A stretch of DNA of 64,000 bases, taken from contig JAQVBE010000006.1 of the NCBI GenBank assembly GCA_028690445.1, forward strand, positions 62,001 to 126,000. The letters run 5' to 3'. Both the position numbers and the translations under genes were made by a program. This stretch comes from Aliarcobacter sp. (lineage in GTDB: Bacteria > Campylobacterota > Campylobacteria > Campylobacterales > Arcobacteraceae). Below, piece after piece: positions 9,809 through 14,149 of this stretch; the stretch's first letter is position 1; each line of letters opens with the position of its first letter. The notes below the pieces were generated by a model that was not told where the DNA came from, searched no databases, and saw only the letters and a list, made by a program, of their open reading frames with translations.

Positions 9809-12508
9809 ATGGTATTAAGTTGGAATGAAATAAAAAACAGAGCAATAAACTTTTCAAAAGAGTGGGAAACAGAAGAAAAAGAACACGCAGAATCTCAAAG
9901 CTTTTGGAATGATTTTTTTGACATTTTTGGAATCAGTAGAAAAAGAGTAGCTTCATTTGAAGAACCAGTTAAAAAACTTGGAGAAAAAAGAGGAAGAATC
10001 GACCTTTTTTGGAAAGGTACACTTCTTGTTGAGCACAAATCTCGTGGCAAAGACCTTGACAAAGCCTACACTCAAGCCCTTGATTATTTCCCTGGACTCA
10101 AAGAAGCTGAACTTCCAAAATATATTTTAATCTCTGATTTTGAAATCTTTAAACTTTATGATTTAGAAGAAGACAAATCTTACGAATTTACTCTAAATGA
10201 ACTATATAAAAATGTTCATCTTTTTGGATTTATTGCAGGTTATACAAAACACAAAGTTGTTGCAGAAGACCCAATAAATATTAAAGCTGCCGAGCTTATG
10301 GGAAAACTTCATGATGAGCTAAAAGATACTGGTTATGATGGTCACGCTTTGGAGCATTTTTTAGTACGACTTCTATTTTTAGAATTTGCAGAAGATACAG
10401 CTATTTTTGAAAGAAGATTATTTACTGAGTTTATTGAAAATAGAACTTCTATTGATGGAAGTGATGTTGGAAGTAGATTTACAGAGCTTTTCCAAGTATT
10501 AAACACGCCATTTGATAAAAGACTAAAAAATCTTGATGAAAGTTTGGCAAGTTTTCCTTATGTAAATGGAAAACTTTTTGCAGAGTTTTTACCAATTCCT
10601 TCTTTTGATAGTAAAATGAGAGATATTTTACTTGAGTGTTGTTATCTTGATTGGAGCAAAATATCTCCTGCTATTTTTGGTTCTCTTTTTCAATCAATCA
10701 TGGACAAAGCCCACAGAAGAAATCTAGGTGCTCATTATACAAGTGAAGCAAATATTTTGAAACTAATCAAACCCCTATTTTTAGATGAACTTTATGAAAA
10801 ATTTGAAAAAGTTAAAAAGAACAAAAAACAACTAGCAGAATTTCACAAAGAGTTATCAACTTTGCACTTCCTAGACCCAGCATGTGGAAGTGGAAATTTC
10901 CTCATCATCGCATATAGGGAACTGCGAATTTTAGAGCTTGAAATATTAAAAATTTTATACACAGAAAGCGTACTTGATATATCTTCAATTATCTGGTTTG
11001 ATGTAGACCAATTCCACGGAATCGAAGTTGAAGAGTTCGCTTCTCAAATAGCACAAGTTGCAATGTGGCTAATCGACCACCAAATGAATATGATGATAAG
11101 TGAACATTTTGGGCAATACTTTGTGAGACTTCCACTAAAAAAATCAGCAAATATCGTTCATGCAAACTCACTTCAAATTCCATGGGAAGATGTGATAAGC
11201 AGTGATAAATTAACTTATATTTTGGGTAATCCCCCGTTTATTGGTTCAAAACTTTTAAATACAAATCAACGAAAAGAAATGGAAACTATTTTTGCTGATG
11301 TAAAAAATGGAAAAGTTTTAGATTATGTAACTGCTTGGTATTTAAAAGCTTCAAAATATATCCAAAATACAAAAATAAAAGTAGCTTTTGTATCTACAAA
11401 CTCAATATCACAAGGTGAGCAAGTAGGGATTTTATGGAAAGAGTTATTTTCAAACTATGGAATAAAAATCCACTTTGCACACCAAACTTTCAACTGGAGC
11501 AATGAAGCAAAATCAAATGCAGCAGTTCATGTGGTAATCGTTGGATTTGCATCTTTTGACACAATTAATAAAAGAATATTTGAATATGAAAATATAAAAG
11601 CTGAAGCCCATGAAAAAAATGCAAAAAATATAAATCCTTATTTAGTTGAGGGAGATGATTTAATCATTGAATCAAGAAATAATCCTTTGGTTAAAGTACC
11701 ACAAATATCTTTTGGCAATATGCCACTTGATGGAGGAAATTTAATTATTGAAGATGAAGAATTAGAAGAATTTCTAAAAAAAGAACCAAATGCAAAAGAT
11801 TATATTTTATCATTAATAAGTGCTAGAGAATTTCTTAACAATAAAAAAAGATGGTGTTTATGGCTTGAAAATATAAGTCCAAAAGAACTTAGAAATATGC
11901 CTTTAGTTATACAAAGAGTTGAAAATGTAAAAATATTCAGAGAAACAAGTATTGCTCCATCAACTCAAAAACATGCTTTAACCCCAACTTTATTTAGAGA
12001 TAGAAAAAGACCAAATACATTTATTGTCGTTCCAAGTACGACATCTGAAAATAGAGCTTATATTCCAATGGGATTTTTTGATAAAAATTATATTGCAAAT
12101 AATAGTTGTCACATCATCCCAAATGGAGATTTATTTTTATTTGGACAACTTACATCACTTATGCACATGTCATGGGTTAAATATACTTGTGGAAGATTAA
12201 AAAGTGATTATAGATATTCAAAAGATTTAGTTTACAATAACTATCCATTTCCAAAAAATGTAGATGAAAAACAAAAATCAGCAGTTGAAGAAAAAGCACA
12301 AAATGTTTTAAATATTCGTTTACAATTTAGTGATTGTAGCCTAGCCGACCTTTACGACCCACTTTCTATGCCACCAAATCTAAAAAAAGCCCATCAAGAA
12401 TTGGACAAAGCAGTGGATAACTGCTACGGCACAAAATCATTCAAAAACGATAAAGAAAGAATCGAGTTTTTATTTGGATTGTATGAGGAGTATTTGAGTG
12501 GAAACTAA
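9809..12508 (+). CDS. MmeI-like type IIG restriction-modification protein (N-terminal nuclease + N6-adenine methyltransferase + target recognition domain)
   Basis: N-terminal GRIDLFWKGTLLVEHKSRGKD (PD-(D/E)XK-like), LDPACGSGNFLIIAYRELR (motif I), NPPFIG (motif IV), about 900 aa. Confidence 0.9.
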   Translation: MVLSWNEIKNRAINFSKEWETEEKEHAESQSFWNDFFDIFGISRKRVASFEEPVKKLGEKRGRIDLFWKGTLLVEHKSRGKDLDKAYTQALDYFPGLKEAELPKYILISDFEIFKLYDLEEDKSYEFTLNELYKNVHLFGFIAGYTKHKVVAEDPINIKAAELMGKLHDELKDTGYDGHALEHFLVRLLFLEFAEDTAIFERRLFTEFIENRTSIDGSDVGSRFTELFQVLNTPFDKRLKNLDESLASFPYVNGKLFAEFLPIPSFDSKMRDILLECCYLDWSKISPAIFGSLFQSIMDKAHRRNLGAHYTSEANILKLIKPLFLDELYEKFEKVKKNKKQLAEFHKELSTLHFLDPACGSGNFLIIAYRELRILELEILKILYTESVLDISSIIWFDVDQFHGIEVEEFASQIAQVAMWLIDHQMNMMISEHFGQYFVRLPLKKSANIVHANSLQIPWEDVISSDKLTYILGNPPFIGSKLLNTNQRKEMETIFADVKNGKVLDYVTAWYLKASKYIQNTKIKVAFVSTNSISQGEQVGILWKELFSNYGIKIHFAHQTFNWSNEAKSNAAVHVVIVGFASFDTINKRIFEYENIKAEAHEKNAKNINPYLVEGDDLIIESRNNPLVKVPQISFGNMPLDGGNLIIEDEELEEFLKKEPNAKDYILSLISAREFLNNKKRWCLWLENISPKELRNMPLVIQRVENVKIFRETSIAPSTQKHALTPTLFRDRKRPNTFIVVPSTTSENRAYIPMGFFDKNYIANNSCHIIPNGDLFLFGQLTSLMHMSWVKYTCGRLKSDYRYSKDLVYNNYPFPKNVDEKQKSAVEEKAQNVLNIRLQFSDCSLADLYDPLSMPPNLKKAHQELDKAVDNCYGTKSFKNDKERIEFLFGLYEEYLSGN

Positions 12509-13484
12509 TAATATAAAAATTATTCAAGAAATTTTAGTAAAAGCGAATAAATATGATTTGGCAACTAAATTAGAAAATGCTTATTATGAAAATGAATTAA
12601 TAGATAATTGGAATGGTGGAATAGGAAGAACAATAATATTTGTAAATCCAAAATATATTATGGAATTGGAAAAATTAGTTGAAGAAGATATAGAATTATT
12701 AATAAAGATATTTGACCAAATGCAACAAGAATACGATGAAATAAAATATATTAAATTTAAAATAAATATAAATATGCAACAAAACCATACCCAAAATAAT
12801 GAACTTGCAACATTTTGGGAACAAGGACATTTTAAACTTTTCATTAGTCATTTAGCAAAATATAAAATACAAGCCACTAATCTAAAAGATGGACTAAAAT
12901 TATATGGAATATCTGGATTTGTTGCTCATGTTGATATAGAAACAAGTAAACAATGGCAAGATGAAATTGAAAAAGCATTACATACAATGGACGCTTTAAC
13001 AGCAATTTTAAGGGAAGGCTTTAAAGAAAGTAATTGGTGCGACCAAGAAGTAGGTTTTGCAGTTGGCAAAGATATATTAATTATTCCAATTAGACAAGGA
13101 ATTAGACCTTATGGGTTTATAGGAAAATATCAAGCTATACAAGGTAATAATACAACTGTTCAAGATGTAGCCAAAAAAGTATTTAATACGATAGTTAAAA
13201 ATCCTAAAACTAGAAATAAAATGCTTACATGTTTAACTAATCTAATTTCAAATTCAACACATATAGAAACTGCTTTAAAACAGTTAGAAATATTATCTGA
13301 AATATCAGATTTACCACAAGAACTTTTAGAACAAATGGCAAAACAAATTGAAAATAATAATGTATTAATTCATTCATCAGATTTTATAAATAAACTCGAT
13401 GTTTTTTTTAATCAGTGCGGAATAAGTATTATTTTAAAAAATAAAGACAATATTTCAGAATTTATTGGAAAAATACCATTCTAA
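12498..13484 (+). CDS. TIR-domain protein with uncharacterised N- and C-terminal regions
   Basis: KLFISHLAKYKIQATNLKDGLKLYGISGFVAHVDIETSKQWQDEIEKALHTMDALTAILREGFKESNWCDQEVGFAVG; conserved SxWCxxE glutamate; GTG start overlapping the RM gene by 11 nt. Confidence 0.85.
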   Translation: METNNIKIIQEILVKANKYDLATKLENAYYENELIDNWNGGIGRTIIFVNPKYIMELEKLVEEDIELLIKIFDQMQQEYDEIKYIKFKININMQQNHTQNNELATFWEQGHFKLFISHLAKYKIQATNLKDGLKLYGISGFVAHVDIETSKQWQDEIEKALHTMDALTAILREGFKESNWCDQEVGFAVGKDILIIPIRQGIRPYGFIGKYQAIQGNNTTVQDVAKKVFNTIVKNPKTRNKMLTCLTNLISNSTHIETALKQLEILSEISDLPQELLEQMAKQIENNNVLIHSSDFINKLDVFFNQCGISIILKNKDNISEFIGKIPF

Positions 13485-13539
13485 ATAAAGTATCTCTAGG
13501 TTATTTATATTATCAATTTTTAACAGCAGTTAGAAAAGA

Positions 13540-14149
13540 TACAAGAAAATAAAATCTCAATATAAAATTTATAATATTCGTGGTTTTCAAGTGATGTTAG
13601 ATAGTGATTTAGCTCAACTTTATGGGGTTGAAACAAAAAGAATAAACGAAGCTGTTAGAAATAATCCAAATAAATTTCCTGATGATTTTTATTTTGAAGC
13701 AACAGATGATGAACTTGAAAACTTGAGGTAATAGATACAGTCCAAAACTATTCACAGAGCAAGGGATATACATGCTTGCAACCATACTAAAAAGTAAAGT
13801 TGCAACTGATATAACTGTGATGATAATAAGAACTTTTGCAAATATGAGAAAACTTATAAATAGCAATGATTTTTATATACATCAACTAAAAGAGTTAGAA
13901 AAAAGACAATTAACTTATGAAATAAAATCAGATGAAAAATTTGATAAGATTTTTGATGCCCTAGAAAATAAACAAATTCATCCCACAAATGGAATTTTTT
14001 ACAATGGACAAATTTTTGACTCATATATTTTTATATCAGACTTAATAAAAAGTGCAAATAAATCTATTGTTTTAATTGATAATTATATCGATGATACAAC
14101 CTTAACACTTTTTTCAAAAAGCCAAGATATAAAGATTTGGCTTAATTAA
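13540..14149 (+). pseudogene. ORF6N-domain protein, frameshifted and 3' truncated
   Basis: IYNIRGFQVMLDSDLAQLYGVETKRINEAVRNNPNKFPDDF...ENLR* then, in the +1 frame, RYSPKLFTEQGIYMLATILKSKVA...IDDTTLTLFSKSQDIKIWLN*. Confidence 0.85.

What the first reader, a model, noticed from the sequence alone, without database searches (positions are those of the whole stretch)
9809..13484. MmeI-like type IIG RM protein translationally overlapped by a TIR-domain gene: candidate two-tier defence module
The RM stop codon lies inside the TIR reading frame (GTG at 12498, RM stop at 12506-12508), so the two genes are probably co-translated. The TIR domain keeps the SxWCxxE glutamate expected of NADase-type TIRs. 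It is flanked by an N-terminal region of about 100 aa and a C-terminal region of about 100 aa that I cannot assign. A single-chain restriction enzyme paired with a TIR effector suggests an abortive-infection back-up triggered when restriction fails, by analogy with PrrC/EcoprrI. I do not recognise this pairing as a named system, but I could not search.
Basis: partly seen in the sequence, partly recalled or inferred. Interest (0 to 1): 0.75.

Follow-up and report, generated by a model that had tools for sequence, protein, structure and literature searches.

The report
TIR suicide-gene cargo behind MmeI restriction enzyme
Behind this bacterium's DNA-cutting enzyme MmeI sits an interchangeable slot that carries a different predicted cell-suicide or anti-phage gene in nearly every relative examined; here it holds a TIR gene, with a fossil of the gene it replaced still beside it.

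Summary
9809-12508 encodes an intact MmeI-family (type IIG/IIL) enzyme, and 12498-13484 a TIR protein whose GTG start overlaps the MmeI stop.

The reading as a fixed two-gene system is not supported: 17 of 19 TIR homologues have no MmeI in the flank read. The evidence points instead to a cargo slot. Eleven other MmeI orthologues carry different 3' content (TPR-HEPN, RhuM, DUF3800, pentapeptide-TM, unknowns). 9 of 12 overlap the MmeI stop, against 21-24% for random gene ends. In a more distant MmeI subfamily the slot holds SIR2-HerA, PrrC/RloC-like AAA_13, Abi_C, ApeA-HEPN, nSTAND or TIR. In most of the 71-100%-identical set the Shine-Dalgarno lies in MmeI's last codons (Y-E-E-Y-L).

Directly behind the TIR stop is a 23-codon fossil of a pentapeptide cargo (95.9% DNA identity). 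The N-terminal domains are shuffled: the TIR's is shared with DUF3800 proteins in type I RM operons, and the TIR family's native one is on a DUF3800 in another MmeI slot. Standalone relatives end in an SSB-tail mimic (DDIPF/DDLPF).

Best reading: a coupled, swappable back-up effector, extending the rlo/mlo genes known at Campylobacter type I loci. No function was tested; the trigger is inferred.

The parts
9809..12508 (+). MmeI-family type IIG/IIL restriction-modification enzyme (nuclease, helical spacer, MTase, TRD, C-terminal domain)
   Evidence: Pfam MmeI_N/hel/Mtase/TRD/C; MmeI 5hr4 1083.8 bits with nuclease D..ExK and MTase NPPF regions aligned
12486..12490 (+). AGGAG Shine-Dalgarno inside MmeI's conserved C-terminal codons (Y-E-E-Y-L), 7 nt before the TIR start
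   Evidence: Same element at 7-8 nt spacing at L047, L051, L053, L061, L063; AGGA at L050
12498..13484 (+). TIR cargo gene, 328 aa, GTG start, 11-nt overlap with the MmeI stop
12498..12803 (+). N-domain 1 (residues 1-102), helix-helix-strand-strand-helix-helix-strand, shared with DUF3800 proteins of type I RM loci
   Evidence: 51.5% identity to G012, blastp E 1e-24, loci L025-L028, L087, L089, remnant L090
12807..13163 (+). TIR domain (residues about 104-222)
   Evidence: TIR_2 3.6e-11; 81% identical to the Sulfurovum homologue L006; TIR fold
13047..13049 (+). Putative NADase glutamate E184 of SNWCDQE
   Evidence: Invariant in 14 homologues
13164..13484 (+). C-terminal helical bundle and tail ...GKIPF (degenerate SSB-tail-like end)
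   Evidence: Model helices 221-306, pLDDT about 90; tails of relatives DDIPF/DDLPF
13481..13552 (+). Fossil: last 23 codons plus stop of a pentapeptide-TM cargo gene (LNKVSLGYLYYQFLTAVRKDTRK*), fused to the TIR end
   Evidence: 23/23 aa to G425 cargo residues 400-422, E 1.8e-8; 95.9% over 73 nt
13555..14149 (+). Frameshifted ORF6N/RhuM-like (PADLOC PDC-S05) pseudogene, probably another former neighbour
   Evidence: PDC-S05 8.5e-40; frames

Best explanation
The TIR gene is the current occupant of a cargo slot at the 3' end of an MmeI-family RM gene. SHOWN by sequence: MmeI's last codons contain an AGGAG ribosome-binding site. Different effector-type genes start 7-8 nt behind it and overlap the MmeI stop. 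Cargo is gained, replaced and deleted, leaving fossils. The same effector domains and N-terminal domains are reshuffled between this slot and type I RM operons. INFERRED: the TIR is translated in step with MmeI. It acts as a second-tier NAD-degrading abortive effector when phage DNA escapes or blocks restriction. Its N-domain 1, found almost only in RM loci, senses or docks on something common to RM loci, while its parent family used another N-domain and an SSB-like tail.
For: MmeI and TIR identity and overlap. Different content in the slot of 12 orthologues, 9 overlapping, above control. Shine-Dalgarno in MmeI codons. Pentapeptide fossil after the TIR stop; DUF3800 ends left in G037; DUF3800 and RhuM fossils beside other cargos. 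Two N-domains by two effectors: N1-DUF3800 in type I loci, N1-TIR here, N2-TIR in L006 and standalone, N2-DUF3800 in G038's MmeI slot. N-domain 1 lies in RM loci in 8 of 9 cases: type I x6, IIG x1 (window), III x1 remnant. Cargo in a distant subfamily includes SIR2, AAA_13 (PrrC/RloC-like), Abi_C, ApeA, TIR. Independent MmeI-TIR in a Deinococcus plasmid, MmeI-Abi in Pseudomonas.
Against: No expression, phage or NAD data. The N1-TIR fusion was seen once only. In Gammaproteobacteria MmeI 3' ends look like background (4 of 16) and most plasmid MmeI have no tight 3' partner, so the slot is mainly a feature of the window's phylum. Intact cargo without intact MmeI (L006, L053) shows cargo does not need MmeI to persist. 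Some cargo (pentapeptide-TM, the 179-aa and 263-aa proteins) has no demonstrated toxic activity.
Confidence: 0.6

Rival explanations
1. Hitch-hiking cargo: the slot is a convenient expression site. The TIR is an independent defence gene with its own trigger and borrows only MmeI's transcription and translation, with no functional link to restriction.
For: 17 of 19 homologues act without MmeI in the flank read. Cargo survives MmeI loss (L006, L053). Cargo types share no obvious partner surface for MmeI.
Against: N-domain 1 is almost confined to RM loci of three types. Effector-type genes recur in RM loci, and cargo is shared between type I and IIG loci (pentapeptide gene in G083).
Confidence: 0.3
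2. PrrC-like guard: MmeI protein binds and silences the TIR through N-domain 1, and phage anti-restriction releases it.
For: Analogy with PrrC/EcoprrI as described in PMC3710099 and PMC2610378; overlap giving stoichiometric synthesis; RM-linked N-domain 1.
Against: An intact TIR with a deleted MmeI exists (L006, though with N-domain 2). N-domain 1 is not MmeI-specific, as it serves type I loci too.
Confidence: 0.2
3. Plain defence-island neighbourhood: unrelated genes happen to lie next to each other and the overlap is accidental.
For: Defence genes cluster; 21-24% of gene ends in related genomes overlap anyway.
Against: 9/12 overlap; constant Shine-Dalgarno spacing; swap fossils exactly at the slot; same position used by many effector classes.
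Confidence: 0.08

Closest known systems
rlo/mlo (restriction-linked ORFs) of Campylobacter jejuni type I hsd loci (Miller et al. 2005, as cited in PMC2610378 and PMC5183652)
   Same: Variable extra ORFs, some of RloC type, inserted in RM loci of Campylobacterota; N-domain 1-DUF3800 genes here sit in just such places.
   Different: There the host is a type I hsd operon; here the slot is the 3' end of a single-chain MmeI enzyme, with the ribosome-binding site inside its codons, fossils of replaced cargo, and TIR cargo.
PrrC/EcoprrI and HEPN effectors embedded in RM operons (Anantharaman et al. 2013, PMC3710099)
   Same: Second-line suicide effector coded with an RM system; ApeA, PrrC/RloC, RhuM and Fic neighbours named there recur in the slots found here.
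   Different: Effector here is a TIR (and DUF3800), not a HEPN nuclease; host enzyme is type IIG; RM-mediated silencing is not shown and is weakened by L006.
Backup effectors of BREX and related systems (PMC12839542)
   Same: Interchangeable effectors recruited beside a methylation-based system.
   Different: Multi-protein PglZ/PglX systems; a text search for MmeI and DUF3800 in that paper found nothing.
Bacterial TIR NADases (AbTir, BtpA, PdTIR; Thoeris ThsB)
   Same: TIR fold and W-x3-E glutamate.
   Different: Own family with a C-terminal helical bundle and, in relatives, an SSB-like tail; no ThsA partner.

Membership tests
MmeI (type IIG/IIL) RM enzymes | N-terminal nuclease, helical spacer, adenine MTase, TRD and C-terminal domain in one chain | tested here: met
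   All five Pfam domains; full-length alignment to 5hr4
MmeI (type IIG/IIL) RM enzymes | Cuts and methylates a specific site | not testable with these tools
   Needs enzyme assay or methylome
TIR NADase effector | TIR fold with catalytic Glu in SxWxxxE | tested here: met
   TIR_2 hit, fold match, E184 invariant
TIR NADase effector | NAD+ cleavage | not testable with these tools
   No assay
Thoeris | ThsB TIR with adjacent ThsA effector | tested here: not met
   Only weak ThsB hits (25 bits); neighbours are MmeI and pseudogenes
PrrC/RloC-type RM-guarded toxin | ABC ATPase plus HEPN anticodon nuclease | tested here: not met
   No such domain in the window protein; an AAA_13 protein of this kind occupies the slot of L071
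PrrC/RloC-type RM-guarded toxin | Toxin silenced by the linked RM enzyme | tested here: inconclusive
   Intact TIR with deleted MmeI in L006 argues against it, but with a different N-domain
rlo/mlo restriction-linked ORFs | Variable ORF inside a type I hsd locus | tested here: not met
   Window host gene is type IIG; the N-domain 1-DUF3800 relatives meet it
Proposed MmeI 3' cargo slot | Different genes overlapping the stop of orthologous MmeI, with a Shine-Dalgarno in MmeI codons | tested here: met
   9/12 overlap, Shine-Dalgarno spacing 7-8 nt

The most novel reading that the evidence does not exclude
In this phylum MmeI-type enzymes are chassis: their conserved last codons double as a ribosome-binding site for whichever suicide effector sits behind them. 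The effectors (TIR NADase, RNase H-fold DUF3800, HEPN, SIR2) are exchanged as modules and built from a small set of sensor domains, one of which (N-domain 1) reads a state common to type I, IIG and III restriction. The standalone TIR family is a separate surprise: it mimics the host SSB C-terminal tail, probably to sense or reach SSB partners at phage replication forks.
Probability: 0.35. Interest if true: 0.8.

Novelty: new variant of a known kind. Interest (0 to 1): 0.62.

Why it matters
It offers a defined place, the 3' end of MmeI-type genes, to look for new abortive effectors, and a natural set of domain swaps (two N-domains by two effectors) for testing what an RM-linked sensor domain recognises. 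The fossils catch effector exchange in the act. If N-domain 1 reads the state of restriction, the old question of how RM systems trigger second-line suicide, answered so far mainly for PrrC, becomes testable in a small protein. The SSB-tail mimic gives a concrete handle on how a TIR family may sense infection.

Tried and rejected
(1) MmeI-TIR as a fixed pair: rejected, see homologue contexts. (2) Thoeris or retron-TIR membership: only weak TIR-domain hits. (3) Homology of N-domain 1 with the native TIR N-domain: not supported, hhalign probability 0.4%; the blastp alignment starting near residue 50 against TIR relatives is not evidence of a shared N-terminus. (4) N-domain 1 outside the phylum: none in IMG/VR or plasmids; genome contigs could not be rescanned. 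(5) Solved relatives by sequence for the TIR protein: none; N-domain 1 gave no fold match of its own, as Foldseek hits were to RNase HII for DUF3800 and to TIRs. (6) Mixed alignment A3 misplaced the N-domains and was discarded for A5. (7) Universality of the slot: rejected after Gammaproteobacteria (4 of 16, background level) and plasmids. (8) Phages: no TIR homologue. (9) One search compared a profile that contained the query and was ignored.

Full report
OBSERVATION. The two ORFs, the GTG at 12498 and the RM stop at 12506-12508 are as described. The first protein has all five MmeI Pfam domains and aligns end to end with crystallised MmeI (5hr4, 1083.8 bits). The second has a TIR domain at residues 115-215. 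Its model matches TIR structures BtpA, PdTIR and AbTir, and E184 of SNWCDQE is invariant in 14 homologues. The window lies in a 2.42-Mb, nearly complete genome.

NOT A FIXED PAIR. A scan of genome contigs found 19 homologues of the TIR protein. Only two have MmeI sequence in the flank read; three loci had short upstream flanks. In L006 (Sulfurovum) MmeI is reduced to a 68-codon remnant (residues 1-29 joined to 859-897) that the TIR start still overlaps. In L022 (Spirochaetae) a 60%-identical MmeI lies 1.3 kb downstream.

A CARGO SLOT. The family scan and phylum scan gave MmeI orthologues of 71-94% identity. Read at the 3' end they carry: TPR plus LA2681-like HEPN (G045, 94% identical MmeI); RhuM (G049); a 263-aa SH3-like protein (G070); a 179-aa protein (G039) with partial similarity to it; pentapeptide-TM proteins (G092, G425, G413); DUF3800 (G038); a 195-aa ORF then DUF3800 (G428); or nothing intact (G024, G037). 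With the window, 9 of 12 have a start codon within 20 nt before the MmeI stop end. In twenty random 20-kb stretches of four related genomes 77 of 332 gene ends do (p about 3e-4; with the distant subfamily 23 of 32, p about 1e-7 or lower). The loci are not fully independent, so these values are rough.

COUPLING. In the window AGGAG (12486-12490) lies 7 nt before the GTG and is part of the codons for MmeI's conserved Y-E-E-Y-L end. The same element at 7-8 nt precedes the cargo start in L047, L051, L053, L061 and L063, and AGGA in L050; L048 has its own AAGGA.

FOSSILS. Starting at the TIR's last codon, 13481-13552 reads LNKVSLGYLYYQFLTAVRKDTRK*. This is 23 of 23 residues of the end of the G425 pentapeptide cargo (E 1.8e-8), with 95.9% DNA identity over 73 nt. 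So a pentapeptide cargo stood here before the TIR. The empty-looking slot of G037 keeps the last 14 codons of a DUF3800 cargo, and its start resembles that of the G038 DUF3800 gene (by eye). L061 and L006 keep DUF3800 starts behind their cargo, and L047 a RhuM piece. A pentapeptide relative also sits in the type I RM operon of G083 (L026), so cargo is shared between RM types.

SHUFFLED DOMAINS. Residues 1-102 of the window TIR (N-domain 1) match the N-termini of DUF3800 proteins (51.5% identity to G012). These lie in type I RM loci, right behind hsdS in L025, L028, L087 and L089 and elsewhere in the locus in L026 and L027. A remnant lies between type III mod-like and res-like genes (L090), and one copy (L088) lies behind folC without RM (hsd, mod, res and folC named by eye). 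The TIR part is 81% identical to L006 over the TIR domain while the N-terminal parts do not correspond (25.6%; hhalign probability 0.4%). The TIR family's native N-domain 2 in turn is found on the DUF3800 of G038's MmeI slot (hhalign 95.7%; a phylum HMM search hits only a TIR and this protein, E 1.4e-7). DUF3800 itself models as an RNase HII-like fold (1eke, E 1.7e-6). So two N-domains and two effectors occur in all four combinations, all tied to RM loci except the standalone TIRs.

DISTANT MmeI SUBFAMILY. MmeI-like enzymes of about 42% identity sit in an operon with a DEAD helicase and a GIY-YIG/T5orf172 protein. In four loci (L059, L060, L078, L079) the helicase overlaps the MmeI stop directly. 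In others the gap holds SIR2 plus HerA (L058, L069, L073), AAA_13 of PrrC/RloC type with an Mrr-nSTAND3 protein (L071), Abi_C (L068), ApeA HEPN (L056), DUF2971 (L067), nSTAND proteins (L072, L075), SIR2 (L076), or a 295-aa protein plus a TIR (L074).

SCOPE. Outside the phylum the pattern is sporadic. A Deinococcus radiophilus plasmid has MmeI overlapped by an unrelated TIR, Pseudomonas mendocina has MmeI then Abi_C, and Methylobacterium currus MmeI then a PLD protein. Most other plasmid MmeI lack a tight 3' gene, and in Gammaproteobacteria 4 of 16 overlap, the background rate.

SSB-TAIL MIMIC. All the TIR relatives with a full C-terminus except L022 and L023 end in acidic-x-PF (EWDDDIPF, YDDLPF, DEIPF). 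This is the same tip as SSB, LPF in Bacteroidota and IPF in most others (VPF in two), as in their own SSBs where these could be read. A Klebsiella plasmid copy ends ESDDIPF; none of 363 control ORFs ends in PF. The window protein has lost the acidic part (GKIPF).

MECHANISM. Shown: anatomy, slot behaviour, fossils, shuffling. Inferred: coupled synthesis, NADase activity, and a back-up abortive role. PrrC-like silencing by MmeI is possible but weakened by L006 and L053. The trigger read by N-domain 1 is unknown; its near confinement to RM loci suggests something common to restriction (RM proteins, unmodified or cut DNA).

PRIOR ART. HEPN, RhuM and Fic genes in RM operons, including ApeA in epsilonproteobacteria, are described in PMC3710099. 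rlo/mlo ORFs in C. jejuni type I loci are described in PMC2610378 and PMC5183652. Backup effectors of BREX are in PMC12839542. I found no paper on an MmeI 3' slot, a DUF3800-RM link or a TIR with an SSB tail. Only open-licence papers were searched, so absence is weak evidence. Hence: new variant of a known kind.

Noticed in passing
L006-L021 TIR C-termini; window 13464-13484: Standalone TIR family members end in a mimic of the host SSB C-terminal tail (DDDIPF, DDLPF, DEIPF), LPF or IPF as in their own lineage's SSB; 0 of 363 control ORFs end in PF. The window copy is degenerate (GKIPF).
   Followed up: partly
L056-L060, L067-L079, L105-L107: Recurrent operon of an MmeI-like enzyme, a DEAD helicase and a GIY-YIG/T5orf172 protein, often with a Fic gene and a variable effector insert between MmeI and helicase; no matching named PADLOC system for the helicase or nuclease beyond weak hits.
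   Followed up: partly
window 13555-14149: Frameshifted ORF6N/RhuM-like (PDC-S05) pseudogene behind the TIR gene; related ORFs lie behind other MmeI genes (L064, L074).
   Followed up: partly
L054 (G023): A second genome of the same genus carries MmeI (96% identical over 423 aa) at the same chromosomal place behind the same ABC-transporter gene, but the contig ends inside MmeI, so its cargo is unknown.
   Followed up: no
L053 (G092): MmeI is broken into three pieces while the overlapping 467-aa pentapeptide cargo is intact.
   Followed up: partly
L090 8190-8300: 37-residue remnant of N-domain 1 between a putative type III mod and res gene.
   Followed up: partly
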